Shown piece after piece: positions 1,744 through 18,076 of a stretch of DNA of 64,000 bases (within the stretch, counting starts at the first letter, position 1; each line of letters begins with the position of its first letter). This DNA comes from Paraburkholderia sprentiae WSM5005. GTDB lineage: Bacteria > Pseudomonadota > Gammaproteobacteria > Burkholderiales > Burkholderiaceae. The stretch spans positions 62,001 through 126,000 of the forward strand of contig NZ_CP017563.2 in NCBI RefSeq assembly GCF_001865575.2, in the 5' to 3' direction. A program made the position numbers and the translations under genes. The notes below the pieces were generated by a model that had not been told where the DNA came from, searched no databases, and worked only from the letters and a program-made list of their open reading frames with translations.

Positions 1744-2205
1744 TTATTTTTTTATTGCCGAAGGTTTCGTCAAGGTGAGCTGGTTGCAGTCCTCACAGAT
1801 GCCCTTGATCTCGGTTTGCTGTCCCTGCACCTCGAAGTGAGCGGTCAGTGCCGTGTCGAGTAGCGCCTGCTGCAGCTCGATATTGTGCAACGGGCGAACG
1901 GAATGGCAGTGCATACAGACCGCGAAGATTTCGTGTTGGCCTTGATTCTCCTCGGTCAGGCGGAACGTGCTCGTTGTCGAGACGTGCCGGACAAGGCCTT
2001 CACGAATCAGAAACTGCAACGCGCGGTAGATGGTGGGTGGCCCGGCATGAGGAGACTGTCTGTTGAGGTCCTCGAGCAACTGATAAGCCGTGGCCGATCC
2101 GCCACGCGCAACGAGCAGGCCGAGTACGCGTCGACGCAGTGGCGTGAACCGTCGGGTTCCCGCCGCAGGCGTCTCGTCGCCTGGCGGTGATTGCGGATTC
2201 GGCAT
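1744..2205 (-). CDS. zur: Fur-family zinc uptake regulator (Zur)
   Basis: A 153-residue protein with an N-terminal winged helix (FTPLRRRVLGLL, PPTIYRALQFL) and a C-terminal dimerisation domain. Two CxxC pairs, CMHC and CEDC, match the structural zinc site of Fur/Zur proteins. The ATG at 2205 is chosen over the GTG at 2217 because GGTGGAG sits 7 bases before it. Zur represses zinc-import genes when zinc is plentiful. The setting supports Zur rather than Fur: it is divergent from COG0523 GTPases and a ZnuABC-type importer, next to a TonB receptor, with Zur-like dyads on both sides. The dyad at 2250-2267 could also give autoregulation. Confidence 0.88.
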   Translation of the reverse strand: MPNPQSPPGDETPAAGTRRFTPLRRRVLGLLVARGGSATAYQLLEDLNRQSPHAGPPTIYRALQFLIREGLVRHVSTTSTFRLTEENQGQHEIFAVCMHCHSVRPLHNIELQQALLDTALTAHFEVQGQQTEIKGICEDCNQLTLTKPSAIKK

Positions 2206-2249
2206 TGAATGCTCCACCTGAAGTGCTAAAAATCCAACCTGCTATGCGA

Positions 2250-2267
2250 GTAATAATATAACATAAC
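2250..2267 (+). promoter_or_regulatory. Zur-box-like operator between zur and the zinc operon
   Basis: The 18-bp sequence GTAATAATATAACATAAC is an imperfect dyad with the same length and AT-rich core as the site at 1705-1722. It lies 26 bp before the first GTPase start and 45 bp before the zur start, so it could control both divergent genes. Assignment rests on motif and context. Confidence 0.6.
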
Positions 2268-2292
2268 ACTCAAGGTAACAGCCTGAGTAATC

Positions 2293-3519
2293 ATGAACAA
2301 GCTTCCAGTCACCGTCCTTTCGGGATTCCTTGGCGCAGGCAAGACGACGCTGCTGAATCACGTGCTCAATAACCGCGAGGGCAGACGCGTGGCCGTCATC
2401 GTCAACGACATGTCCGAGGTGAACATCGATGCGCGCCTGATACGCGAGGGCGGTGCGCAGCTGTCGCGCTCCGAGGAGCGGCTGGTCGAAATGAGCAACG
2501 GCTGCATTTGCTGCACCCTGCGGGAGGATCTGCTGGTCGAGATACGGAAACTGGCCGGTGAAGGGCGGTTCGACTATCTGCTGATTGAGTCGACGGGTAT
2601 ATCGGAACCGCTTCCGGTTGCCGAGACGTTCACGTTCCGCGATGAGACGGGCCTGAGCCTGTCCGACGTGGCGCGGCTGGACACCATGGTAACCGTCGTG
2701 GACGCGTACAACTTCGTGCGTGACTACAGTTCACACGACCGCCTGCATGAGCGCGGCGAAACGATGGGAGAGGAAGACGGCCGTACCGTCGTGGATCTCA
2801 TCACCGAACAGATCGAATTCGCCGACGTGATCCTCCTCAACAAGACCGATCTCGTCAAGCCGGACGAATTGACGCAACTGAAGGGCGTACTGCGTAGCCT
2901 TAATAGTCGGGCGGAAATCGTGACCTCGTCCTTCGGGCGCGTGCCGCTCGAGAGGGTGATGGGCACAGGGCGCTTTGACTTCGAAGCCGCTTCCCAGGCT
3001 CCGGGGTGGCTCAGGGAAATGCGCGGCGAACGGATTCCCGAAAGCGATGAATACGGCATCACGAGTTTCGCGTATCGGGCGCGCAGACCGTTCCATCCGG
3101 AGCGGTTCTGGAACTGGATACAGGCGGAATGGCCCGGCGTCGTGCGGTCAAAAGGTTATTTCTGGCTCGCTTCGCGCCATGACCTCGTCGGCAACTGGTC
3201 GCAGGCGGGAGCGATTTCGCGGCACGCTCTGGCTGGCAGATGGTGGGCCGCGGTACCTCGAAGCCGCTGGCCGCAGGATGCCGAAAGCCAGGCAATGATC
3301 GCGCAGCGCTGGTCCGCACGGTTCGGTGATCGCCAGCAGGAACTGGTGCTCATCGGCACCGGCATCGACGAAGCTGCATTGCGTGCGGGGTTTGATGCCT
3401 GTCTTCTGACGAACGCTGAGATGGGCTCGGGCCCGGCAGTCTGGGAACACTACGTGGATCCGTTTCCCGCGTGGTCAATGGAAGGTTCGATCGAAACCAG
3501 CCAGGTGGACGGTGAGTGA
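2293..3519 (+). CDS. CobW/COG0523 GTPase, ZigA-like zinc metallochaperone
   Basis: A 408-residue G3E-class P-loop GTPase. Visible motifs are Walker A GFLGAGKT (residues 11-18), the metal-binding CICC (71-74) that defines COG0523 proteins, and the guanine-specificity motif NKTD (183-186). The C-terminal CobW_C domain follows, and the length of about 400 residues fits the ZigA/YciC branch. These proteins are thought to deliver zinc to client enzymes in zinc starvation using GTP. It is the first gene of the zinc operon, directly behind a Zur-like dyad, with AAGG upstream of the ATG. The client protein cannot be read from the sequence. Confidence 0.88.
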
Positions 3520-3689
3520 TCCGCAGACCGTCCTTGACGCGACGTCTCCGAGCGGGAGTGCGAAGCTTGAGCCGCACACGCTGCATTCTCGAGGTCGCCA
3601 TCGCCTGACGGCGACGCTGTCCATACATGCCTGAACGTCCTGGTTTTCACAACAGGCACACTCTCTACCCTTTTCGGAAAGACACGATC

Positions 3690-4712
<1,023 letters not shown>

Positions 4713-4887
4713 GCTTTCAAAATCGTTCATTTTCGAAGCCGCTCATACGCAATGCCCGATCGGATCGAGTGCGCGGCGGTTGTCCGAACCGTGGCCGGCC
4801 CGCAGACCCATCGGCTGAAAGGGCGAGACGGGCGAAATTTATAGAAGGCCTCTCTTCTGTCTTCAATTACCGCGACAGGTTATTCAA

Positions 4888-5904
4888 ATGTCAAATTTCG
4901 ACGTGTTGCCTCGCAACCCGATTAACGTGCGCTCGCGATCCACTGCACGACGGTACGCATCCTTGCCCCGGCCAGTCGGGCGTGGCGCCTGGCTTGCCCT
5001 TTTCGCGACGTTCGCACTGACGGCCTTGCCCTGTGGGAACGCCGTTGCGGCATCGTCGGCATCGGGCGTCATCAACGCGATCGGTATCGAAAACGAATAT
5101 GCCGATGTGATCTCGCAGATTGGCGGCAAGTATGTTCAGGTCACGGCAATCGAAACCGATCCGAATACCGACCCGCATACGTTCGAGGCCAACCCCAAGG
5201 TCGCATCGCAGATCGCCTCAGCCGATCTGATCGTCAAGAATGGCGTTGGTTATGACGCCTGGGCCGACAAGATCATTGCGGCCTCGCCGAACGGCAAACG
5301 CAAGATCATCGACGTGCAACATCTGCTCGGCTTGCCGGACAGCACACGAAATCCGCACCTTTGGTACGACCCGAAGACCATGCCGGCCGTGGCGAAAGCG
5401 ATTGCCGCTGAGCTGGCCGCGCTGCAACCCACGCAGGGCGATTATTTCCAGAACAATGCGAAGAAGTTTGACGCGTCGCTGAAGCCCTGGTTGAAGGAGA
5501 TCGAGTCGTTCAAGGCACATTACGGCAAGACGTCCGTCGCGGTCACCGAGCCGGTGGGAGACTACATGCTTCAGGCAGCCGGCACGGACATCGCGACGCC
5601 CTTTAGCCTCGAGGCCGCAATCATGAACGGCACGGACCCGTCGCCGCAGGATGTGAGCACGCAGAACAAACTGTTCACGGACCACAGGGTCAAGGTATTC
5701 GTCTACAACCAGCAGGTCACGGACGCGCTTACGCAGTCGTTCCTCAAGCTCGCCAGGGAGAATGGCATCCCGGTCGTAGGCGTCTACGAAACGATGCCGA
5801 CCCCAGGCTTCAACTACCAGTCGTGGATGCTGGCCGAGCTCACCGCCTTGCGCGGTGCAGTAGCCGACAAGACCTCGACCGAAACGCTGCATGCTGGGAA
5901 ATGA
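4888..5904 (+). CDS. znuA: Zinc/manganese ABC transporter substrate-binding protein (ZnuA-like)
   Basis: A 338-residue periplasmic binding protein of the TroA/ZnuA cluster 9 family. A basic N-terminus is followed by a hydrophobic segment of about residues 34-55 ending GNAVAA, read as a signal peptide. Likely metal ligands are the histidines in DPHTFEA and NPHLWYD, with the acidic ligand near the C-terminus. The long His-rich loop typical of many ZnuA proteins is absent, so manganese cannot be excluded from this protein alone. The Zur context argues for zinc. The stop overlaps the next start (ATGA at 5901). Confidence 0.87.
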   Translation: MSNFDVLPRNPINVRSRSTARRYASLPRPVGRGAWLALFATFALTALPCGNAVAASSASGVINAIGIENEYADVISQIGGKYVQVTAIETDPNTDPHTFEANPKVASQIASADLIVKNGVGYDAWADKIIAASPNGKRKIIDVQHLLGLPDSTRNPHLWYDPKTMPAVAKAIAAELAALQPTQGDYFQNNAKKFDASLKPWLKEIESFKAHYGKTSVAVTEPVGDYMLQAAGTDIATPFSLEAAIMNGTDPSPQDVSTQNKLFTDHRVKVFVYNQQVTDALTQSFLKLARENGIPVVGVYETMPTPGFNYQSWMLAELTALRGAVADKTSTETLHAGK

Positions 5905-6731
5905 GCGGTATGCAAGACCTACGCGAGGTGCTTGCTGTTGACCGGGTAAGTGTCTCGTTTGCGGGACACAGCGTCCTTCGTGACGTCGACTTCAAGCTGC
6001 ACGCGGGCGAGTTCTGCGGGCTGATCGGCGCGAATGGTTCGGGCAAGACGACGTTGCTGCGAACCATCCTGGGTTTTCAGAAAGCCGCGGGGGGCGGTGT
6101 CAGGATCAACGGGCAATCGGGCCTCGGGTCGTTAGGCTACGTGCCGCAGAAAATCATGCTCGACGCGTATCTTCCTCTGCGTGGGCGGGACATGGTCGCC
6201 CTGGGGCTTGACGGCCACAGGCTGGGGCTGCCCATGCCGTCGAAAAAGCGCCGGGCGTCGGTCGACGAAATGCTCGAGGCGGTGGATGCAGAACACTTCG
6301 CGGACCGGCGGATCGGTGAGCTTTCCGGTGGCCAGCAACAGCGGATCCTGATCGCGCATGCCTTGATCCGGCGGCCCAGATTGCTGCTGCTCGATGAGCC
6401 GCTTGCGAATCTCGACATCGGCAGCGTTGCCAGCATTGTCACCCTGCTGCGACGTCTGTCGATCGAACAAGGAATCACGATACTGCTGTCCGCACACGAC
6501 ATGAATCCCTTGCTGCCCGTGATGGATAGCATTGTCTATCTCGCTCATGGGCGCGCCGTGAGCGGTCCTGCGGACGAAGTCGTGCGAAGCAAAGTCCTGA
6601 CCCAACTGTATGGCTACCACATCGACGTCATCCGCGTTCATGGAAGGGTCCTCGTGATCGCCGCGGACAGCGCGGACGAGATACGTGCGGCGCGTGAGCG
6701 GGAACCCGCTCACGCGGTGCAGGTTCCCTAA
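5901..6731 (+). CDS. znuC: Metal ABC transporter ATP-binding protein (ZnuC-like)
   Basis: A 276-residue ABC ATPase with Walker A GANGSGKT (residues 43-50), signature LSGGQQQR (from 141) and Walker B LLLLDEP (161-167). The start is the ATG at 5901, which overlaps the znuA stop and has GGGAA before it; a longer in-frame reading from 5823 lies inside znuA. It powers zinc import together with the binding protein upstream and the two permeases downstream. Confidence 0.88.
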   Translation: MSGMQDLREVLAVDRVSVSFAGHSVLRDVDFKLHAGEFCGLIGANGSGKTTLLRTILGFQKAAGGGVRINGQSGLGSLGYVPQKIMLDAYLPLRGRDMVALGLDGHRLGLPMPSKKRRASVDEMLEAVDAEHFADRRIGELSGGQQQRILIAHALIRRPRLLLLDEPLANLDIGSVASIVTLLRRLSIEQGITILLSAHDMNPLLPVMDSIVYLAHGRAVSGPADEVVRSKVLTQLYGYHIDVIRVHGRVLVIAADSADEIRAAREREPAHAVQVP

Positions 6732-6734
6732 ACC

Positions 6735-7649
6735 ATGATGGATTTTTCGTCTGCAATGATCTTCGCGGCTGGGTTTTTCACGAACGAGCCGGTCCTCACC
6801 GCCTTGATGGTCGGTGGGGGGGCCGCGCTCGTATCTGGCGTAGTCGGCGTGTTCACTGTCATGCGAGGCCAGTCGTTTGCGGGCCACGCGCTCGCCGATG
6901 TTAGTAGCGCGGGGGGTGCAGCCTCTTTTCTGCTGGGGATCAATCCGCTGCTCGGCTTTCTGTTCATGGCTCTCCTCGCCGCAGGCGGAATGGAAATGGT
7001 CGACGTCCGACGCACCCGCGAACGTGACCTTGTGACGGGGGTGGTGCTGGGCGCAGGACTCGGCCTGGCCGCCTTGCTGCTGTACATGGACGTCACGTCG
7101 GGCAGTACGACAGGGGCGGCTATCACAATCATGTTTGGCTCGATGTTCGCCATTCCTGCATCCATCGTTCCTCTTGCTCTTGTGGTCGGCGCCGGTGCAC
7201 TCGTCACGATGGGGATGATTTATCGACCGCTACTCCTCAGTTCACTCGACCCCGACCTCGCTGCGGTGCGAGGGGTGCAGACACGTCTGATCGGACTGCT
7301 GCACCTGCTGGTTCTGGCACTGGCCGTGTCGCTTTCGGCGATTACCGTTGGTGCAATCCTGTCCACGGCGCTGCTGATCGGGCCGGCTGCGATTGCGCTG
7401 CGTCTCGCGAAGCGGCCTGCATGGGCGGTGCTCATTGCGGCGCTGACGGGCGTGGGTGCCACATGGGGCGGGATACTTCTCGCGTATGACAGTTACTACT
7501 GGACACCGGGCCATGGCTGGCCGGTAAGCTTTTTTGTCGTCACACTGATTTTCGTGATGTATGTCGCGACCGGTTGCGCCGGACGTGGCCGCGAAACCGG
7601 TTCGGGCGCTCGCGCATTGATCCGGGACCAACGGCTGGATGAGGTTTGA
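6735..7649 (+). CDS. znuB: Metal ABC transporter permease 1 (ZnuB family)
   Basis: A 304-residue ABC-3 family membrane protein with about eight hydrophobic segments. The motif RGQSFAGHALADVSSAGGA is the loop typical of ZnuB/MntB permeases. It starts 3 bases after the znuC stop. The next gene encodes a second, different ABC-3 permease, so the channel is probably a heterodimer, unlike the single ZnuB of E. coli. Confidence 0.86.
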   Translation: MMDFSSAMIFAAGFFTNEPVLTALMVGGGAALVSGVVGVFTVMRGQSFAGHALADVSSAGGAASFLLGINPLLGFLFMALLAAGGMEMVDVRRTRERDLVTGVVLGAGLGLAALLLYMDVTSGSTTGAAITIMFGSMFAIPASIVPLALVVGAGALVTMGMIYRPLLLSSLDPDLAAVRGVQTRLIGLLHLLVLALAVSLSAITVGAILSTALLIGPAAIALRLAKRPAWAVLIAALTGVGATWGGILLAYDSYYWTPGHGWPVSFFVVTLIFVMYVATGCAGRGRETGSGARALIRDQRLDEV

Positions 7650-7651
7650 CG

Positions 7652-8473
7652 ATGTTCTCCAGTTTCATGATCAACACGTGGATCGTCGCGACCATCGTTG
7701 CAGCCGTTGCCGGTTGTGTCGGCTTCTTTGTCGTCGTTCGGGGGGCAACGTTTGCCGCGCACACATTGCCGCTTGGAGCCTTTCCTGGCGCTGCAGCCGC
7801 AAGCCTTATCGGTGTCAACCCGCTGTTCGGTCTGATCGCCTTCTCCGTCATCGGCGTTATCGGGATCAGCCAGCTCAGCCGCAGGGGGCGGTCCGAGGTT
7901 GCCACGGCACTTTGTCTCGTCACGCTGCTCGGGTTGGGGGTATTGTTCCTGAGCATGACGAGCGAGTACTCACAGGAGGTTTATGCGCTGCTCTTTGGAG
8001 AAGTGCTGGGCGTCAGCAACAGTGATCTCGCCCCGATCGCGATCATGAGCGTTGTGTCGGTCGCGCTTATCGCACTGCTGTTTCGTCCGCTTCTGGTGAC
8101 CGCCGTGTCACCTGAACTCGGGGGGGCCAGGGGCGTATCGAGCAAACGGATTGAGTTGTGGTTTCTGGCGATACTTGCGCTTTCAACATCGGTGGCGTTG
8201 CCCGTGGTGGGGGCGTTGCTGGTGTTCAGTCTGATGGTGGGTCCCGCGTCTGCCGCGCGCTCCCTGAGCGACCGCCCGGTCGTTGCCATGTCCCTGTCGG
8301 TGGGCATTTCGCTGGTCACGGTATGGGCCGCGATTGTTCTCTCGTACGAGTCGAACTGGCCCGTAGGATTTTTCGTCGGCGCGTTCGGTGCGATTTCCTA
8401 TGCGCTGGGGCGACTCGTCGCCGGGGCAGGCGGCCCGCGTGGTCTGCCAAAAGTTGCTGAAGCCAGGCATTAG
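7652..8473 (+). CDS. Metal ABC transporter permease 2 (ABC-3 family)
   Basis: A 273-residue ABC-3 family permease with repeated hydrophobic segments and the family loop RGATFAAHTLPLGAFPGAA. The ATG at 7652 is preferred to the in-frame TTG at 7646 because GAGG stands 7 bases before it. It follows permease 1 with almost no gap. Its sequence differs clearly from permease 1, so the pair is an old duplication or a heterodimer rather than a recent copy. Confidence 0.85.
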   Translation: MFSSFMINTWIVATIVAAVAGCVGFFVVVRGATFAAHTLPLGAFPGAAAASLIGVNPLFGLIAFSVIGVIGISQLSRRGRSEVATALCLVTLLGLGVLFLSMTSEYSQEVYALLFGEVLGVSNSDLAPIAIMSVVSVALIALLFRPLLVTAVSPELGGARGVSSKRIELWFLAILALSTSVALPVVGALLVFSLMVGPASAARSLSDRPVVAMSLSVGISLVTVWAAIVLSYESNWPVGFFVGAFGAISYALGRLVAGAGGPRGLPKVAEARH

Positions 8474-8757: not shown

Positions 8758-9114
8758 TCAGGGTGACGTCACCTGCTCGACCGGTCCGTGGTCGTCGCAG
8801 TGGTCACCGTGCGGATGATGCAGGTGACCGTCGACAAGATAATCAACGTGATCGCCATGCGGCACCGCTTCGTGGCCGCACCCGGGTCCGTGCACGTGAC
8901 CCGCCTCGTGGCCGCCGCAGTCAGGCGTACATTGATCCGGATTGGTCGCGCTCACTTCGAGCTGATGTTCGTCCACATGATCACCGTGCGGGTGATGCAG
9001 GTGACCGTCGTGCAGATAGTCAACGTGACCGTTATGTCTGATCGCCGTGTGGCCGCATTTTGGACCGTGCTGATGCTCGTGATGGGCATGATGTGGCTCG
9101 TGACAGGTGCTCAT
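8758..9114 (-). CDS. His-rich metal-binding protein with an internal duplication
   Basis: A 118-residue soluble protein with about one third His and acidic residues and no signal peptide. It holds two near-copies of a motif, HVDYLHDGHLHHPHGDH and HVDYLVDGHLHHPHGDH, each preceded by a GPxCGHxA segment. The ATG at 9114 is chosen because AGGAG precedes it at good spacing; the upstream in-frame GTG is too close. The composition suggests cytoplasmic binding or storage of zinc, nickel or cobalt. It is convergent with the zinc importer operon, which fits zinc homeostasis. No enzymatic motif is visible and the exact function is unknown. Confidence 0.75.
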   Translation of the reverse strand: MSTCHEPHHAHHEHQHGPKCGHTAIRHNGHVDYLHDGHLHHPHGDHVDEHQLEVSATNPDQCTPDCGGHEAGHVHGPGCGHEAVPHGDHVDYLVDGHLHHPHGDHCDDHGPVEQVTSP

Positions 9115-9330
9115 GGTCACTCTCCTGACGGTGTGTCAAGGGTCTTCTTTTCCGGGCCCGGCTCTATCGCTGAGCATGCTTTCGAGCAGCGTGCGCGACA
9201 GGCAGGATCATCAAACGCAGGCGCGTCACGGCTCGCGTCAACCATTGAACCTGGTATCCAGGTGGCGGACCGATACCGCTATTAACGCAAGCGCCCAAGA
9301 CTCGTTGAGACTATCTCAGTCGATCATCTC

Positions 9331-10834: not shown

Positions 10835-11284
10835 ATGAAGCGAACTTTCCGAACTCTGGTCATGATCCCGTTTTGCATGGCATCGCTCACCGCATTTGCG
10901 GCTCCGTCCGCGTCGGTGAGGGTCTCCGATTGCTGGATTCGTGCCTTGCCGGGTGATCTGCCGTCCGGCGGCTATTTCAAGGTGGTGAACATGAGCGACA
11001 AGCCCGTGGATCTCACGGGTGTTGAGACCAACGCCTTCGGGATGGCCATGCTTCACCAGACCCAGAGCAACGGCAGCACGTCCGCGATGGTGATGGTCGA
11101 CAAGGCGACGGTGCCGGCGAACGGCACACTGACGTTCGCGCCGGGCAACTACCACGTCATGCTCGAACAGCCGAAGAAGCCGCTTAAGGTCGGCACCTCG
11201 ATTTCGCTGGCATTCAATTTCAGCGACGGCGAGAAGGTTACAGCCGCGTGCATGGTCAAGAGCCCCGGCACGGTGGCTGAATAG
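10835..11284 (+). CDS. Periplasmic copper chaperone, PCu(A)C family
   Basis: A 149-residue protein with a signal peptide (residues 1-22, ending AFA) and one PCuAC domain. The copper ligands of the family, an H/M cluster, are visible in MAMLHQT, the following methionine pair and YHVMLEQ. These proteins bind Cu(I) in the periplasm and help load CuA of cytochrome oxidase. AGGAG stands before the ATG. It sits alone in the zinc island, without a Sco or CopC partner, and no Zur-like dyad was seen before it. Family call is firm; the link to zinc genes is only positional. Confidence 0.85.
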   Translation: MKRTFRTLVMIPFCMASLTAFAAPSASVRVSDCWIRALPGDLPSGGYFKVVNMSDKPVDLTGVETNAFGMAMLHQTQSNGSTSAMVMVDKATVPANGTLTFAPGNYHVMLEQPKKPLKVGTSISLAFNFSDGEKVTAACMVKSPGTVAE

Positions 11285-11345
11285 TGGCGTTGCGGGTGGC
11301 CGCAAGGCGGCCCGCTTGCGCGCACTCTCACCCCATTCTGTCCTC

Positions 11346-11555
11346 ATGGAGAAGCCGACGAGTCTGTGTAACCGGATTTTGCGTCACGCCGCGTACTTGA
11401 ATGTCGGAGCGTTGATCGCAGTAGTTCTGTGGGTTATGTGGGTTTTACCGCTTTCCGCGGGATCCGCCTGGGCGGATACGCCCTCAGTGCAAACGCTGCA
11501 TGCCTGTCCATGCGAGATTTCTCGCCAGGCCGTCGTCAATGCGAGTCACATTTAG
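11346..11555 (+). CDS. Small hypothetical membrane or exported peptide
   Basis: A possible 69-residue product with one hydrophobic stretch (GALIAVVLWVMWVLPLSAG) ending SAWADT, similar to a signal peptide, then a short tail with CPC. No clear ribosome-binding site precedes the ATG and no family is recognised. It may be the 5-prime remnant of a longer exported protein. Treat as doubtful. Confidence 0.25.
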   Translation: MEKPTSLCNRILRHAAYLNVGALIAVVLWVMWVLPLSAGSAWADTPSVQTLHACPCEISRQAVVNASHI

Positions 11556-11802: not shown

Positions 11803-11882
11803 TTGACGTCCGATCCGACAACCTTGAGTTTCCCCACCTGTCGCGTTAAATTGCGCCTCGCAGATCGTGCAAGCCGCGTTCG

Positions 11883-11930: not shown

Positions 11931-13844
11931 ATGTCAACGCGGGAGAGACCTAAAGAAAGTGACGTGCGCGAGCGGTCGGCCGAACGTAACGATACCTTGC
12001 TGCCCGGATGTATGGCTGCGGCATTGGCAGGCTTGCTGGGCGCCTTGAGCCTGTCGAAGAGCGTGTCCATCGATCTGCGCTGGAGCGCGGTGATGGCGAG
12101 TGCATGCCTGAACCTGGTGATCGTCGCGCTCTGGCGCCCGTCGGTAGCGCGCGCACCGGCAGCTCCTGAGAAGGAATCGGTCTGGAAGCGCGGCGTAAGT
12201 TTCGTGAAGCAAGTCGTCTTGCACGACGCCCGAAAGCCGGACTTCAGCAGCCTCGTGCGCACCCTTCGCTGGCAACCCTGGTGCCTCGCCATGTGCGCCG
12301 GTCTGTCCATGTCGATCGCCGCAATGGCGTTCGAGCCCTTGGCCGCTGACGCGCTGATCCACGCGATGGTTGCGCCGTCCCTCACGATCGTCAGCGGCGC
12401 GGCTGCGCTGATTCTGGCATTTCTCACGCTCGTTGCCGAACGGTTTTACGCACACGACGCGCAGCGCTCGCGTGACTCGCTGTCCGCGTCGCTGGCGGGC
12501 CTGCTGCGCGTCCTGCTCCTGTGCGCACTCGGGGCGGCGTTGTCGGCCGGATGGTTGGTCTACGCGCATATGACGGTCGATCTGGTCGTGCACGTTGCCG
12601 CAGTCTTCTGTGCGGCCATTGCCGTCGAAATGCTGGTGCGTGCGCTTCTTGTATGGATCTTCCCGCCGCGCGCCGGTGAACATGCGACGCATGTGCCATC
12701 AAGCCTGCTTGCCGGGCTATTGCATTATCGACGCTCGCCGCTCGCGTCAATCGGTGCCGAATTGCATGACCGCTATGGCATCGATCTGCGCCAGAACTGG
12801 GTGCTGCGCAGTTTCATGCGGCTGTTACCCGCCACGATGGTGGCGATGGCAGTCTGTGCATGGTTGCTGACCTCCGTCGTGGTGCTGGACCCTTCGCAAC
12901 GCGCGGTCTACGAGCGATTCGGCGCGCCGGTGGCCGTGTGGTCGCCCGGGCTGCATATCGGCATGCCCTGGCCGTTCGGCAAGGCTCGCCTTGTCGACAA
13001 CGGCGCGGTGCATCAGATCATCGTCTCGGGTGGCGCAGACGACAGCAGCGTCCCGGCACCCTCCGTCGACGCCGACGGTCCGACGCCCGAGCAGTTGAAC
13101 CGTCTCTGGGACGTCCAGCATCCATGGGAGACGAGCCAGGTGATCGCCGGTGCCACCGGCGATCAGCAGAGCTTTCAGATCGTCAACGCCGATGTGCGGC
13201 TGGATTACCGCGTGGGCTCGAGCGACGCGGCCGCGCGCGCCGCGCTGTACCGGTCGGTCGATCCGGAAAGCACGGTCCGCTCGATCGCCAATCGCGAGGT
13301 GATGCACTATCTCGCCTCGCATACGCTGGAGGCTTTGCTCGAGACAAGCCAGACCGCCATTGCTGAAAACGTGCGCGGCGCGGTTCAGCGGCAACTCGAT
13401 CAGCTCGCGAGCGGCATCGAAGTCGTGGCGGTCGTCATCGAGAGCGTGCACCCGCCAGCGGGCGCTGCCTCGGCTTATCACGACGTGCAGGCCGCGCAGA
13501 TCCGCGCGCAGGCAAGTGTCGCCAGGGCGCATGGCTTCGCGGCGCAATTGCTGGGCAATGCGCAGCAACAGGCGCTCACCGGGGTCGCTCAGGCTTCGGC
13601 GCGAGCGGCGGACACGCTTGCGTCGGCGCATATGCAGCAGATCAATTTTGAAGCCGACACAGTCGCATACCGGCTAGGCGGACCGGCCTTTGCATTCGAG
13701 TACTACCTGGCCCGCTTGCAGCATGGGTTGCAGAACGCACGCATCACGGTGATCGACGACCGGCTGGTCGCCGACCGGCGCGCGACCCTCGATCTGCGTA
13801 CTTTCACAGCCGGCGATCTTGCTGGCTTTCCGCACAGCAACTGA
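11931..13844 (+). CDS. Large SPFH/HflK-like protein with N-terminal multi-helix membrane domain
   Basis: A 637-residue protein. Residues of about 20-300 hold several hydrophobic helices (for example GCMAAALAGLLGALSLS, LTIVSGAAALILAFLTL) and residues of about 300-625 form an HflK-like SPFH/band 7 domain (DPSQRAVYERFGAP, PGLHIGMPWPFG, NADVRLDYRV). An Ala/Gln-rich coiled coil follows. HflK proper has one membrane helix and about 400 residues, so the extra membrane domain is unusual. The ATG at 11931 has AAGGA before it; in-frame TTG codons upstream are rejected. It heads a four-gene operon ending in a metal ATPase, so a role in organising that pump in the membrane is inferred, not shown. Confidence 0.75.
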   Translation: MSTRERPKESDVRERSAERNDTLLPGCMAAALAGLLGALSLSKSVSIDLRWSAVMASACLNLVIVALWRPSVARAPAAPEKESVWKRGVSFVKQVVLHDARKPDFSSLVRTLRWQPWCLAMCAGLSMSIAAMAFEPLAADALIHAMVAPSLTIVSGAAALILAFLTLVAERFYAHDAQRSRDSLSASLAGLLRVLLLCALGAALSAGWLVYAHMTVDLVVHVAAVFCAAIAVEMLVRALLVWIFPPRAGEHATHVPSSLLAGLLHYRRSPLASIGAELHDRYGIDLRQNWVLRSFMRLLPATMVAMAVCAWLLTSVVVLDPSQRAVYERFGAPVAVWSPGLHIGMPWPFGKARLVDNGAVHQIIVSGGADDSSVPAPSVDADGPTPEQLNRLWDVQHPWETSQVIAGATGDQQSFQIVNADVRLDYRVGSSDAAARAALYRSVDPESTVRSIANREVMHYLASHTLEALLETSQTAIAENVRGAVQRQLDQLASGIEVVAVVIESVHPPAGAASAYHDVQAAQIRAQASVARAHGFAAQLLGNAQQQALTGVAQASARAADTLASAHMQQINFEADTVAYRLGGPAFAFEYYLARLQHGLQNARITVIDDRLVADRRATLDLRTFTAGDLAGFPHSN

Positions 13845-13887
13845 TGCGCACGCCACACGCCGGACAGGCGGTTCTCAAGGTGACTTC

Positions 13888-14952
13888 ATGAGTTTGTTCC
13901 ATTTGCATACCGATGGTCACGGGCATCACCAGCACCACCACCACGATCACGGCAACGGCCGGGCCGGCCGCGGCGGTCCGTTCTACGTGCGTGTCCTGCT
14001 TGCCGCGCTGTGCGTCGTCATCGCGTTTGTCGTGGCGAGTTTCATTTCGGTGCGGGCGGGCGAGGCCTCGGTGATCACGCGCTTCGGGCAACCCGTGCGC
14101 GTGCTGCTCGAACCCGGTCTCGCGTGGCGCCTACCCGCGCCGATCGAGGCAGCAGTGCCGGTCGACCTGCGCCTGCATACGACATCGAGCGGCTTGCAGG
14201 ATGTGGGTACGCGTGACGGCTTGCGCATTATCGTGCAGGCCTACGTCGCGTGGAAAGTCGCTGCGGATCCGAACGACGTGCGCCGCTTTGTTCGGGCCGT
14301 GGGCAACCGGCCCGACGAGGCCGCGCAGCAAATCCGCTCGCTGCTCGGTTCGTCGTTGCAAACCACGTCGGCCGGCTTCGAGCTGGCGTCGCTCGTCAAC
14401 ACGGATCCCTCGCGGGTACGCATCTCCGCGTTCGAGGACGCGCTGCGCAGTCAGATCGACGCGCAGCTTTACTCGGCCTACGGCGTGCATGTCGTTCAGG
14501 TGGGACTGGAGCGCCTGACGTTGCCCGCGGTGACACTCGCGGCGACGGTCAGCCGGATGAGCGCGGAGCGCGAGACGGTTGCCGCGCAGCGTACGGCGGA
14601 CGGAAATCGCGAGGCCGCGCAGATCCGCTCGGACGCGGACCGCGACGCCCGTCTGGCGGTTGCCGACGCGAACGTCAAGGCTGCGCAGATCGAAGCGCAG
14701 TCCCGCCGGGACGCCGCCGCGATCTATGGCAACACCTATGCGGGCAATCCGCGCCTCTATACGATGTTGCGCTCGCTCGACACGCTCGACTCTGTGGTCA
14801 GCGCCAATACCAACCTGATCCTGCGCACCGATGCGGCACCGTTCCAGGCGCTGGTGCAGGGGCCCGCCGACCTGGGGACCGAGCCGTCGCGGCAGGCGGG
14901 CGCGGGCGCGGTGTCCGCGTCGGCGTCGAAAAAATCCAGGGCCGCGCGATGA
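13888..14952 (+). CDS. SPFH/HflC-like protein with His-rich N-terminus
   Basis: A 354-residue protein that begins with a His-rich cytoplasmic tail (HLHTDGHGHHQHHHHDHGNG, residues 5-24), then one membrane helix (residues about 34-53) and an SPFH domain (EASVITRFGQPVRVLLEPG). A helical region rich in Ala, Glu and Arg follows, as in HflC and stomatins. AAGGTGA precedes the ATG at 13888. The metal-binding tail is not usual for HflC and fits a metal-handling job. The stop overlaps the next gene (ATGA at 14949). Confidence 0.78.
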   Translation: MSLFHLHTDGHGHHQHHHHDHGNGRAGRGGPFYVRVLLAALCVVIAFVVASFISVRAGEASVITRFGQPVRVLLEPGLAWRLPAPIEAAVPVDLRLHTTSSGLQDVGTRDGLRIIVQAYVAWKVAADPNDVRRFVRAVGNRPDEAAQQIRSLLGSSLQTTSAGFELASLVNTDPSRVRISAFEDALRSQIDAQLYSAYGVHVVQVGLERLTLPAVTLAATVSRMSAERETVAAQRTADGNREAAQIRSDADRDARLAVADANVKAAQIEAQSRRDAAAIYGNTYAGNPRLYTMLRSLDTLDSVVSANTNLILRTDAAPFQALVQGPADLGTEPSRQAGAGAVSASASKKSRAAR

Positions 14953-16124
14953 CCGCGGACACCAGCTTGCCGCCGCTCGGGCCCGGCGCGCAGGCGGTTC
15001 GGGTCTCATTCTGGTTCGTGGTAGCCGTCACTGTTCTTGCCGCATGCGCATGGGCCGGTTCGAACATCCGGCGCATTCCGCCCGACAGCCGCGCGGTCGT
15101 GCTGCGCTTCGGGGCATTCGTGCGCACCCAGGACGCGGGACTACTGATTGCCTGGCCGCGTCCGTTCGAGTCGACCTTGATGGTGCCCGGCAGTGCGCGC
15201 GTGCTCGAACAACGCATTCAGTCGCTCGAACGCGATCCGCGCGCGCGTCACGCGGACGCCCATTCGCCGCAAGTGCCGCCCTTGTCCGACGTGGAGGGCG
15301 TGACAGGGCCGAGTGATTTGCCAGCTGCGCCGGCCGACGGCATGGCCGCCATGCCGAAGCCCGAGGCCGAAGAACTTGAGGCCACGCCGGCAGCCGGCGC
15401 GCTGTTGCCCGATGCGCTCGCCGGCTCGGGTTACCTGCTGACCGGCGACAACGGCGTCTTGCAGTTGCATGCCACGCTGTATTACCGGGTGGTCGATGCC
15501 TACGCCTATGTCCTGCAAAAAGACCGGCTCGATGCCGCGCTCGAGCGGATCGTGTCGGCGTCGGCGGCCGCGGTTGTGGCGCAGCGCAACCTCGATGCGA
15601 TCCTGGTCGCGCGGCCCGAACTGCTGTCGGCAGGTCAGCAACTGGCCGTCAAGCGTGAGCGCTTGCGCGGCGATCTCGCGCAGGAAATCGAGCGGCACCT
15701 GCGGCAGCTCGACGCGCAGCATGCGGGACTCGGCGTCGAAGTGGCGCGAGTCGATGTCGAGGCCGCATTCCCCGCTGCCGCCGTCAGTGCGTTCAATTCG
15801 GTCCTGACCTCGTTGCAGGTGGCCGAGCGCAGCATGGCTGAAGCGCGCACGGCCGCCGAGAAGACCCGGCAGGATGCCCAGCAGGACGCGGACCGGATCG
15901 TGCTGAACGCCCAGGCGAATGCCGTCGAACGCGTCGCCACCGCACGGGCGAAAACCTTGACCATCCAGCAATTGGAAGCGCCATTGCGCGACCATAGCGA
16001 TCCGGGCCTTCTCGCGCGCGTCTATCGGGACCGGGCGCAGTTGGTCCTCTCGAAAGCCGCCAGCGTGACGACCGTCGATCCGAAGAACACATCAAACCTG
16101 ATCCTGCCGGGGAATGCGAGATGA
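14949..16124 (+). CDS. Third SPFH/band 7 protein of the operon
   Basis: A 391-residue protein with an N-terminal membrane helix (VSFWFVVAVTVLAACAWAG), an SPFH start (IPPDSRAVVLRFGAFVRTQ) and a charged, Pro- and Ala-rich insert of about residues 85-155 inside the domain. A long heptad-like coiled-coil region follows (AERSMAEARTAAEKTRQDAQ). The true start is the ATG overlapping the previous stop; the open frame extends far upstream only as a shadow of the HflC-like gene. Its stop overlaps the P-type ATPase start. HflK and HflC normally occur as a pair, so three SPFH proteins in one operon are unusual. Confidence 0.75.
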   Translation: MTADTSLPPLGPGAQAVRVSFWFVVAVTVLAACAWAGSNIRRIPPDSRAVVLRFGAFVRTQDAGLLIAWPRPFESTLMVPGSARVLEQRIQSLERDPRARHADAHSPQVPPLSDVEGVTGPSDLPAAPADGMAAMPKPEAEELEATPAAGALLPDALAGSGYLLTGDNGVLQLHATLYYRVVDAYAYVLQKDRLDAALERIVSASAAAVVAQRNLDAILVARPELLSAGQQLAVKRERLRGDLAQEIERHLRQLDAQHAGLGVEVARVDVEAAFPAAAVSAFNSVLTSLQVAERSMAEARTAAEKTRQDAQQDADRIVLNAQANAVERVATARAKTLTIQQLEAPLRDHSDPGLLARVYRDRAQLVLSKAASVTTVDPKNTSNLILPGNAR

Positions 16125-18076
16125 GCGCGAGGATCGGGCACGCAGGACACACTGACGACCACGCGTCGCACGCGAATCACGCCGACGGCGTCACTCAGGG
16201 CAGGCCGATCGCCTTGTCGGCAACCGAGCAGCGAGTGATGACGCGGCACATCGCGCTTGCGCTGCTGGCCGGCGGCCTGCTGGTGTTGTCGACAGCATGG
16301 CGTGCGCTCGCCCCGGCGGATGTCACGCTGGCGCAGATACTCGCCGGACTTGCGTCGTTGGTCGTGGCCGGGCCGGTGTTCGCCGGCGCGTGGCAAAGCC
16401 TCAAGTCGCCCAGTCTGCACGGCGTGACCGATCGCCTGATCGCGCTCGCGATGCTGGCCGCGTGGGCCGTCGGAGATATGGCCACGGCTGCCTTGTTGCC
16501 GATCGTCATGACGTTCGGCCATGCGCTCGAAGAACGCAGCGTGCTCGGCTCGCAGGAGGCGATCCGGGCTCTCGGCCGGCTGGCTTCGGGCAAGGCGCGG
16601 CGCATCCGGGCAGACGGTTCGATCGAAGACGTGCCCTACGACGCGCTGCTGGCCGGCGACCAGATTGAAGTGGTGGCCGGCGCACGGATTCCCGCCGACG
16701 GCGTCGTCCAGCACGGCCAGTCGAGCGTCGACAATGGACCGATTACGGGTGAGTCTGTGCCGCTCGACGTCGTGCCGGGGACGGCCGTTTTCGGCGGTGC
16801 AATGAATCTCGACGGTCCGCTACGCATCGACGTCACGCACGCGGGCAAACACTCGACGCTCGGCAAGATCATCGAATTGATGCAGCGAGCCGAGCAGGCA
16901 AAGCCACCGATTACGCAGATACTCGAACGCTACATGGGCGCTTATCTGTGTCTCGTCCTGCTGATCGCGGCCATCGTATGGTTCGCGTCGGCGAATGCGT
17001 CGGCGATGCTGGCGGTCATCGTCGCGGCGTGCCCGTGCGCGCTGGTGCTGGCCGCTCCGTCCACGGCCATTGCCGGGATCGCCGCGGGCGCTCGGCACGG
17101 CATCCTGTTCAGGAGCGCTGCGTTTGCCGACAAGTTCGCGCAGATCGATTCGCTGGTGATCGACAAGACCGGCACGCTGACTTACGGCGAATTGCGCGTC
17201 GAGCAAGTGTTGCTGGAACCGGGCGTCGATGCTTCGCAGGTGCTGGAACTGGCGGGGCGCCTTGGTGGAGGCAGCGCGCATCCGGTGAGCCGTGCGCTGG
17301 TGCGCTATGCGGCGGATGCCATCGCGGGCCTCGAAGCGGCGCCGCTTGAACTTGCGCGCGAACTAGGAGGCCTCGGCATCGTCGCGGATACGGCCGAAGG
17401 TGTCGCCGTGCTTGGCCGCCACGGTTTGCTCGCGGACTACGTGCAGGCTTTGCCGCAACCGCCGCGCGAGATCGACGGTCCCTGTGTGGGAGTCGCGTTG
17501 AACGGCCGCTTGCTGGCGTGGTTCGGTTTCGCCGACGCACTGCGCGCGGAGGCGAAGGACGCGCTCGCCGAATTGCGGGAGCTCGGGTTGACGCGGCAGA
17601 CTCTTCTGACCGGCGACCGCGAACCGGTTGCCCGCAAGCTCGCTGCGCAAACGGGGATCGGGATCGTCGTCGCGCAGGCCTTGCCGCATGACAAGCTTGA
17701 CTATGTCGTGCAGGAAATGGCGGCCGGCTATCATCCGCTGATGGTCGGCGACGGCCTGAACGATGTCCTGGCTATCAAGGCGGGGCCTACCAGCGTTGCA
17801 ATGGGCGGGCGCGGCATCGACATTGCGGTGGCCTCGGCCGATGTTGTCCTGCTCCGCGACGATCTGCGACATATTGCGACAGCCGTGCGGCTCGGCCGGC
17901 GCTGCCTGCATACCGCGACCATCAACGCGGCGATCGGTCTGGCCTGGACGGTCGCGGTGATCGTGCTTGCGGCGACGGGCGCGTTGGGCGCCGTCTGGAT
18001 CGCGCTGCTACATAACGTCGGCACGTTCATTGTGATCGCCAACGCGGGACGTCTGCTGCGAATGGACGACAGATAG
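16121..18076 (+). CDS. P1B-type heavy-metal-transporting ATPase
   Basis: A 651-residue P-type ATPase. Visible are TGES (residues 209-212), the membrane metal motif CPC (304-306), the phosphorylation site DKTGT (from D348), the P1B HP dipeptide (H387) and GDGLND (543-548). There is no HMA domain; instead the N-terminus has a short His cluster (GHAGHTDDHASHANH). The last membrane helix reads LLHNVGTF where ZntA-type zinc pumps have a DxG motif, so the metal cannot be assigned to zinc with confidence. It is translationally coupled to three SPFH proteins. The pump would export, or move to the periplasm, a divalent or monovalent metal. Confidence 0.85.
   Translation: MSARIGHAGHTDDHASHANHADGVTQGRPIALSATEQRVMTRHIALALLAGGLLVLSTAWRALAPADVTLAQILAGLASLVVAGPVFAGAWQSLKSPSLHGVTDRLIALAMLAAWAVGDMATAALLPIVMTFGHALEERSVLGSQEAIRALGRLASGKARRIRADGSIEDVPYDALLAGDQIEVVAGARIPADGVVQHGQSSVDNGPITGESVPLDVVPGTAVFGGAMNLDGPLRIDVTHAGKHSTLGKIIELMQRAEQAKPPITQILERYMGAYLCLVLLIAAIVWFASANASAMLAVIVAACPCALVLAAPSTAIAGIAAGARHGILFRSAAFADKFAQIDSLVIDKTGTLTYGELRVEQVLLEPGVDASQVLELAGRLGGGSAHPVSRALVRYAADAIAGLEAAPLELARELGGLGIVADTAEGVAVLGRHGLLADYVQALPQPPREIDGPCVGVALNGRLLAWFGFADALRAEAKDALAELRELGLTRQTLLTGDREPVARKLAAQTGIGIVVAQALPHDKLDYVVQEMAAGYHPLMVGDGLNDVLAIKAGPTSVAMGGRGIDIAVASADVVLLRDDLRHIATAVRLGRRCLHTATINAAIGLAWTVAVIVLAATGALGAVWIALLHNVGTFIVIANAGRLLRMDDR

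What the first reader, a model, noticed from the sequence alone, without database searches (positions are those of the whole stretch)
11931..18076. Four-gene operon of three SPFH proteins and a P1B metal ATPase
The genes overlap or nearly touch and so form one unit: a 637-residue HflK-like protein with an extra multi-helix domain, a HflC-like protein with a poly-His tail, a third SPFH protein and a P-type pump with its own His cluster. HflK and HflC usually control FtsH; here no protease gene is present. Together this looks like an SPFH scaffold that organises or gates a metal pump. I know of no characterised system of this layout.
Basis: partly seen in the sequence, partly recalled or inferred. 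Interest (0 to 1): 0.8.

Follow-up and report, generated by a model that had tools for sequence, protein, structure and literature searches.

The report
Metal pump with dedicated SPFH cage
Four genes that travel together encode a metal pump and three membrane scaffold proteins that probably build a cage around it, one of them carrying what looks like a dead zinc-transporter domain; the same cluster is known, but unexplained, in Pseudomonas aeruginosa.

Summary
In detail: three SPFH genes and a P1B ATPase form one operon-like unit at 11931-18076; the His cluster of the HflC-like protein is N-terminal. The layout is not unknown. It is the Pseudomonas aeruginosa hmtA cluster (PA2439-PA2437, PA2435), whose pump is reported as a Zn/Cu importer and whose genes respond to zinc limitation; no text I read proposes that the SPFH proteins serve the pump. 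New here: (1) The four genes are one transferable module: in a sample chosen on the pump alone, 11 of 11 genomes carry all three SPFH genes upstream in order, and the 9 plasmid records with the pump all carry the HflC-like gene. (2) The HflK-like protein's extra helices are predicted to fold as a CDF (YiiP/ZnT) transmembrane domain: the 20 best structural matches are all CDF transporters. Its metal-site motif is absent in 44 of 44 relatives, and sequence methods see no CDF similarity. (3) A separate SPFH family carries a genuine CDF domain; the one member seen in context lies beside a heavy-metal ATPase. Best reading: a three-subunit SPFH cage dedicated to an HmtA-type pump. Physical association and transport direction are untested.

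The parts
11824..11861 (+). Conserved promoter-like element: TTGAGT (11824-11829), 17 nt, TAAATT (11847-11852)
   Evidence: Aligned in window and L001-L005; the pattern drawn from it matches once in the window, 0.00 expected, and, of the loci held, only L001-L006 and the window's own copy L031. Below the 9-of-12 threshold of the promoter scan, so not listed there.
11931..13844 (+). HflK-like SPFH protein, 637 aa
   Evidence: alignment A1 of 26
11964..12677 (+). Predicted CDF-like six-helix transmembrane domain of the HflK-like protein (residues 12-249), without the CDF metal-site motif
   Evidence: AlphaFold2 of the N-terminal 310 aa, VIA-align rows 1-20 all CDF, motif count 0 of 44
12882..13535 (+). 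Band_7/SPFH domain of the HflK-like protein (residues 318-535)
   Evidence: Pfam PF01145 E=8.7e-20; structure matches to HflK and stomatin
13888..14952 (+). HflC-like SPFH protein, 354 aa
13900..13950 (+). His-rich N-terminal stretch of the HflC-like protein (residues 5-21)
   Evidence: at least 7 His in the first 60 residues in 42 of 46
14949..16124 (+). Third SPFH protein, 391 aa
   Evidence: 4-base overlaps with both neighbours
16121..18076 (+). HmtA-type P1B ATPase, 651 aa: CPC 304-306, DKTGT 348-352, HP 387-388, H631 N632 in the last helix
1744..8473 (.). Neighbouring zinc-uptake island: Zur-like regulator (-), ZigA, CobW-type GTPase, ZnuA, ABC ATPase, two ABC-3 permeases. Context only, not part of the conserved module.
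   Evidence: no counterpart seen near the module in the 25 loci (about 7 kb upstream held)

Best explanation
This is a mobile four-gene module: an HmtA-type P1B pump plus a dedicated heteromeric SPFH assembly of three distinct subunits. Shown: near-strict co-inheritance as a unit, orthology to the Pseudomonas hmtA-type cluster, and a separate conserved clade for each of the three SPFH proteins. Inferred from the HflK/C and stomatin structures: the SPFH domains form a membrane-anchored periplasmic cage over a membrane patch, and its client is the pump rather than FtsH. The HflK-like subunit adds a predicted CDF-like six-helix bundle without a metal site, which I infer acts as the in-membrane dock for the pump. 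The His-rich tails, mainly of the HflC-like subunit, would lie in the cytoplasm around the pump and bind the metal it moves, to buffer it or to report it back. Direction: most likely zinc (and perhaps copper) import under metal limitation, carried over from what is reported for HmtA.
For: Pump-first sample: 11 of 398 Pseudomonadota genomes hold the pump at E<=1e-130, and all 11 have HflK-like, HflC-like and third SPFH genes upstream in order (ten, the window; in one, L059, there is room for a small ORF before the pump). Five further genomes of a Pseudomonas-type genus read: 5 of 5. Plasmids: the 9 records with the pump at E<=1e-120 are 9 of the 10 with the HflC-like gene at E<=1e-20; the tenth is the Aquibium variant. 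In the tree the Rhizobium HflK-like rows nest with a Pseudomonas-type row (99/87), as transfer would give. Distance matrices of the four proteins correlate at 0.91-0.98 over 44 loci, uncorrected for shared ancestry. Layout and 45-67% identity to a P. aeruginosa-group genome, L080 (HflK-like over residues 230-630 only), with extra ORFs at the places of PA2436 and PA2434. P. aeruginosa data, from passages: cluster genes up 5.6-14.4 fold in a znuA mutant, Zur binds the PA2439 promoter with zinc, proteins raised on zinc depletion, PA2437-PA2439 induced by N-acetylcysteine among Zur-regulon genes. Precedent for an SPFH assembly round a transporter: stomatin with aquaporin-1 and UT-B (PMC12407830, title and abstract). 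CDF-like domain. The pump keeps the P1B catalytic motifs but has T610 and N632 where ZntA has Lys and Asp in the last two helices.
Against: No interaction evidence. The P. aeruginosa deletion of the three SPFH genes is reported to reduce biofilm and attenuate virulence in a moth model, effects the authors call subtle; the paper's main text does not contain hmtA or ATPase, and its one 'zinc' concerns FtsH. hmtA mRNA did not fall on zinc addition in one study. I found no Zur box upstream of the window's HflK-like gene. L007 keeps the other three genes without the HflK-like one, so that subunit, and with it the dock, is not absolutely needed. The CDF-like fold rests on a model with pLDDT 66 and pTM 0.62; sequence profiles see nothing and Foldseek's E-values are 0.28 or worse.
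Confidence: 0.6

Rival explanations
1. The three SPFH proteins are zinc-limitation paralogues of HflK/HflC that act on FtsH or quality control; the pump is merely co-transcribed.
For: They are homologues of HflK/HflC; FtsH is a zinc-dependent protease, and two papers read the induction in that light.
Against: No FtsH gene near; another HflK/HflC-type pair exists elsewhere in the genome; the SPFH genes are tied to the pump in all 11 pump-positive genomes of the phylum sample and on plasmids of three genera.
Confidence: 0.15
2. Same complex, but the pump exports metal (zinc, cadmium or copper resistance), the His tails collecting cytosolic metal for it.
For: Most P1B ATPases export; NCBIfam scores it best as a heavy-metal or cadmium-type P1B ATPase; the module occurs on plasmids, where resistance genes are common (general knowledge). 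A 2022 review says HmtA import needs confirmation.
Against: Induction under zinc depletion in P. aeruginosa; the window's copy lies 3.5 kb after a zinc-uptake operon; the Lys and Asp of ZntA's last two helices are replaced.
Confidence: 0.2
3. The SPFH proteins form a general microdomain for all zinc-uptake proteins, with no specific partner.
For: SPFH proteins are proposed as microdomain organisers (abstract of PMC13086221); in the window the module neighbours znu genes.
Against: The znu-type genes were not seen near the module in the 25 loci, whereas the pump is there in 25 of 25; the pump-specific linkage fits a specific partner better.
Confidence: 0.08

Closest known systems
hmtA cluster of Pseudomonas aeruginosa (PA2439-PA2437, PA2435; the SPFH genes are paFlo5-7 in PA14)
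   Same: Same gene kinds in the same order; window proteins 58% (pump), 67% (HflC-like), 45% (third SPFH) and 46% (HflK-like, part) identical to a P. aeruginosa-group genome (L080)
   Different: The window lacks the small ORF between third SPFH gene and pump, has no recognisable Zur box, and lies beside a znu operon. In what I read the P. aeruginosa SPFH proteins are characterised only by expression and a deletion screen.
FtsH-HflK/C complex of E. coli
   Same: SPFH folds, one membrane helix before a periplasmic SPFH domain, HflC-like and HflK-like subunits
   Different: No FtsH gene here; three subunit types; an extra six-helix domain; His tails
Stomatin assemblies round aquaporin-1 and UT-B (PMC12407830, abstract)
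   Same: An SPFH assembly enclosing a transporter, the arrangement inferred here
   Different: Human, one SPFH protein, client not co-encoded; I recall that stomatin faces the cytoplasm
CDF-SPFH fusion proteins (Aquibium L045 and its 120 listed relatives)
   Same: CDF domain before the SPFH domain; in L045 beside two more SPFH genes and a heavy-metal P-type ATPase
   Different: CDF domain recognisable by Pfam in L045 and the 120 and metal motif intact in 117 of 120; the SPFH domain groups with HflK of other bacteria, not with the window's
CDF zinc transporters YiiP and ZnT
   Same: Predicted fold of residues 12-249
   Different: No detectable sequence similarity, no metal-site motif, and the CDF C-terminal domain is replaced by the SPFH part

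Membership tests
HmtA-type P1B ATPase | P1B catalytic motifs (CPC, DKTGT, TGE, HP, GDGxND), no N-terminal HMA domain | tested here: met
   Motifs in alignment A3 of 18; no HMA hit
HmtA-type P1B ATPase | Orthology to the Pseudomonas hmtA cluster, with conserved gene order | tested here: met
Naming is by recall: L080's contig length equals that I recall for P. paraeruginosa PA7, and a recalled 16S primer for P. aeruginosa matches it, but also three others of 25. PAO1 itself was not compared.
HmtA-type P1B ATPase | Zinc/copper import | not testable with these tools
   Reported for HmtA in the reviews read in passages
ZntA-type P1B-2 exporter | Lys and Asp in the last two membrane helices (role recalled) | tested here: not met
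   T610 and N632 at these columns in the profile alignment to 4umv; both invariant in A3
HflK / HflC (FtsH modulators) | NCBIfam equivalog score for TIGR01933 or TIGR01932 | tested here: not met
   66.1, 111.1 and 90.5 bits against cut-offs 159.4, 134.4 and 159.4
HflK / HflC (FtsH modulators) | SPFH domain | tested here: met
   PF01145 in all three
HflK / HflC (FtsH modulators) | Binding to FtsH | not testable with these tools
   No co-localised ftsH
CDF / SLC30 transporter | CDF transmembrane fold | tested here: met
CDF / SLC30 transporter | Recognisable by sequence profile (PF01545) | tested here: not met
   No hit in 26 members at E<=10; hhalign probability 0.1-0.2
CDF / SLC30 transporter | Metal-site motif ([HD]xxxD type) in helices 2 and 5 | tested here: not met
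   [DH]xxx[DH] in the helix cores: 0 of 44

The most novel reading that the evidence does not exclude
The module is a pump-in-a-cage machine in which the HflK-like subunit is a CDF zinc transporter that lost its metal site and became a structural or sensing pseudo-transporter, holding a P1B pump inside a three-component SPFH cage. Fusion of SPFH proteins to CDF domains would have happened at least twice, once keeping a live metal site, so that SPFH proteins are a recurrent part of bacterial metal transport rather than only FtsH modulators.
Probability: 0.35. Interest if true: 0.82.

Novelty: new variant of a known kind. Interest (0 to 1): 0.64.

Why it matters
Clients of many bacterial SPFH assemblies are unknown. 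This locus names a specific, co-encoded client, and the hypothesis can be tested with gene removals and one pull-down. It would give a function to P. aeruginosa PaFlo5-7, offer a partner-based explanation for the still unconfirmed import by HmtA, and show that assemblies like stomatin-aquaporin exist in bacteria for an ATP-driven pump.

Tried and rejected
Zur box upstream of the HflK-like gene: in the window the best score is 9 of 16 specified positions of a typed consensus, reached by 73% of shuffles. In the 24 other Paraburkholderia/Burkholderia-type regions tested (L001-L024 without L007, plus L042) scores were 7 to 9, the best shuffle share 11% (L014). Three others were higher: L041 11 (24%), L043 10 (22%), L046 11 (3.7%), which with about 30 regions tested is no evidence. 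The zur-cobW gap of the window scores 13 and holds a 1-mismatch site at 2250-2262.

Sequence-level link of the extra domain to CDF: HMM-HMM probability 0.1-0.2 (a control against the pump alignment gave 0.1) and no Pfam hit at E<=10. Only the predicted fold supports it.

Full-length HflK-like model: pLDDT 50, pTM 0.41. It gave the first CDF hint and was followed by the domain-alone model. Foldseek alone was not significant for the domain.

True CDF-SPFH fusions in 299 sampled Pseudomonadota: none at E<=1e-80; the 24 hits match only the SPFH part. On plasmids at E<=1e-40 only Aquibium has one; the Tistrella hit is an ordinary hflK-hflC pair. So the second linkage to a metal ATPase rests on a single record, L045.

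Class sample with the single pump sequence at E<=1e-100 found only the window's own genome in 274; the phylum sample with a profile gave 11 of 398. The module is rare and patchy.

E. coli genomes: no megablast match to the Klebsiella pump.

FtsH-contact residue test: considered and dropped, because residue numbering in the alignment did not match the number in the paper.

First SPFH tree: four own-genome rows were read in a wrong frame; repeated, where own_L026 is still a long, doubtful branch, L066_hflC fills 42% of columns, and rows came from nine loci only.

In one search start codons were chosen by rule; a few tails (for example L060, L082, L083) are probably mis-started.

Full report
What is there. 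Four genes on the + strand at 11931-18076 encode an HflK-like SPFH protein (637 aa), an HflC-like SPFH protein (354 aa), a third SPFH protein (391 aa) and a P1B ATPase (651 aa). The junctions are 43 bp, then two 4-base overlaps. A promoter-like element at 11824-11861 is conserved in the window and L001-L006 and occurs nowhere else in the window. The His-rich run of the HflC-like protein is N-terminal.

Genomic setting. The genome has another HflK/HflC-type pair and FtsH-family genes on other contigs. In the window the module follows a zinc-uptake island: a Fur-family gene nearest to Zur but below that model's cut-off, a GTPase above the ZigA cut-off, a second CobW-type GTPase, a ZnuA-family protein, an ABC ATPase and two ABC-3 permeases, then a PCu(A)C protein. 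In the 25 loci no counterpart of these was found near the module, apart from a 30% ABC-ATPase match in L011. About 7 kb upstream of the HflK-like gene was held, which would reach the znu permeases but not zur or cobW. The neighbourhood is therefore only suggestive.

Conservation. Starting from the HflC-like protein, 25 of 25 loci hold the third SPFH gene and the pump in order, and 24 of 25 the HflK-like gene. Starting from the pump instead, 11 of 398 sampled Pseudomonadota genomes have it at E<=1e-130, and all 11 have the three SPFH genes upstream in order (ten, plus the window). In a Pseudomonas-type genus 13 of 25 genomes have the pump; I read five of the 11 not already in the phylum sample, and all five have the module. 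On plasmids, the 9 records with the pump (Rhizobium 7, Burkholderia 1, Klebsiella 1) all appear among the 10 with the HflC-like gene; I read five of the nine, and all five have the four genes. Of the three of these that carry annotation, two have transposase genes nearby: L041 and L042. Names returned for near relatives of the Klebsiella pump include Salmonella, Citrobacter, Raoultella, Kosakonia and Kluyvera (no context). The four proteins' distance matrices correlate at 0.91-0.98 over 44 loci; shared ancestry alone raises this, so it adds little. Each of the three SPFH proteins forms its own clade, nine loci each, with supports 100/100 or 100/99, and Rhizobium HflK-like rows nest with a Pseudomonas-type row (99/87).

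What it is. The closest known system is the hmtA cluster of P. aeruginosa. L080 has the same order, with one small ORF between third SPFH gene and pump and another after the pump, at the places of PA2436 and PA2434. From passages read: cluster genes rise in a znuA mutant, PA2435 5.6-fold to PA2437 14.4-fold, with a weak Zur site (PMC4542158); Zur with zinc binds the PA2439 promoter, yet hmtA mRNA stayed low and unrepressed (PMC8531726); proteins of the cluster are raised on zinc depletion, significantly for PA2438 and PA2439 by the authors' account, who point to FtsH (PMC11761036); a review says that import by HmtA needs confirmation (PMC10393844). PMC9431628 equates PA2439, PA2438 and PA2437 with PA14_33070, 33080 and 33110, which PMC13086221 calls paFlo5-7. 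That paper deletes the three and reports reduced biofilm and attenuated virulence in a moth model as subtle effects; hmtA and ATPase do not occur in its main text, and its one use of zinc concerns FtsH. My searches for SPFH together with hmtA, P-type ATPase, cation diffusion facilitator or zinc uptake held 747, 59, 31 and 202 papers and listed 20, 15, 12 and 10. By title, abstract start and the passages read, none proposes that these SPFH proteins serve the pump. The library lacks most subscription journals, and I did not see the original HmtA paper.

The pump. It keeps CPC, DKTGT, HP and GDGxND and lacks an HMA domain. In the profile alignment the Lys and Asp of ZntA's last two helices (their role is recalled) are replaced by T610 and N632; the best solved relative is a cadmium-type P-ATPase, 7qbz. 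This sets it apart from ZntA-type exporters but does not prove import.

An independent parallel. An Aquibium plasmid has HflK-HflC-HflK-type SPFH genes, a PPIase, an HMA-containing P-type ATPase, PCu(A)C and SCO genes, and its first SPFH protein carries a true CDF domain (E 4.5e-25). The 120 listed relatives of that protein all have both domains (1693 passed the threshold), and 117 of 120 keep the metal motif. In the tree the four fusions sampled fall with HflK of Tistrella and of the window's genome (94/97) and away from the window's HflK-like clade (100/100), which suggests two separate origins; the deep branches are not strong. Only one such cluster could be read, so the link of fusions to a metal ATPase is a lead.

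Mechanism. HflK/C surrounds FtsH in E. coli (passages of PMC12048511) and stomatin encapsulates aquaporin-1 and UT-B (title and abstract). By analogy, three SPFH subunits form a periplasmic cage on a membrane patch with the pump inside. The HflK-like subunit contributes six extra helices, an even number that keeps the SPFH domain on the periplasmic side, as a dock. His-rich N-terminal tails are found in the HflC-like protein (42 of 46 with at least 7 His in the first 60 residues) and less regularly in the pump (31 of 46 with at least 5 in the first 70). By topology they face the cytoplasm and would hold or report metal. Cage, docking and tail function are inferred.

Verdict. The layout is not new, as it is the hmtA cluster. 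What is new is the demonstration that pump and three SPFH genes are one module across classes and plasmids, the predicted CDF-like domain without a metal site, and the parallel CDF-SPFH fusions with one.

Noticed in passing
L045:7421-8968 (Aquibium oceanicum plasmid, NZ_CP018172.1): CDF cation-efflux domain fused to an SPFH domain, in a cluster with two more SPFH genes, a PPIase, an HMA-type heavy-metal ATPase, PCu(A)C and SCO genes; 120 listed relatives of the fusion share both domains, some named from Chloroflexi and Rhizobium.
   Followed up: partly
window 1744-8473: Zinc-uptake island (Zur-like regulator, ZigA, CobW-type GTPase, ZnuA, ABC ATPase, two ABC-3 permeases) with a Zur-like box at 2250-2262.
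   Followed up: partly
window 8758-9120 (-): Small His-rich repeat protein between the zinc operon and the module, with no Pfam or NCBIfam match at E<=0.001.
   Followed up: no
window 10835-11284: PCu(A)C copper chaperone gene just upstream of the module; not found near the module in the other 25 loci.
   Followed up: partly
L007 (Paraburkholderia piptadeniae): Module without the HflK-like gene; HflC-like, third SPFH and pump genes are present.
   Followed up: partly
L080:8481-8969 and 10977-11522: Two further ORFs in the P. aeruginosa-group cluster with signal-peptide-like starts (by eye), at the places of PA2436 and PA2434.
   Followed up: no
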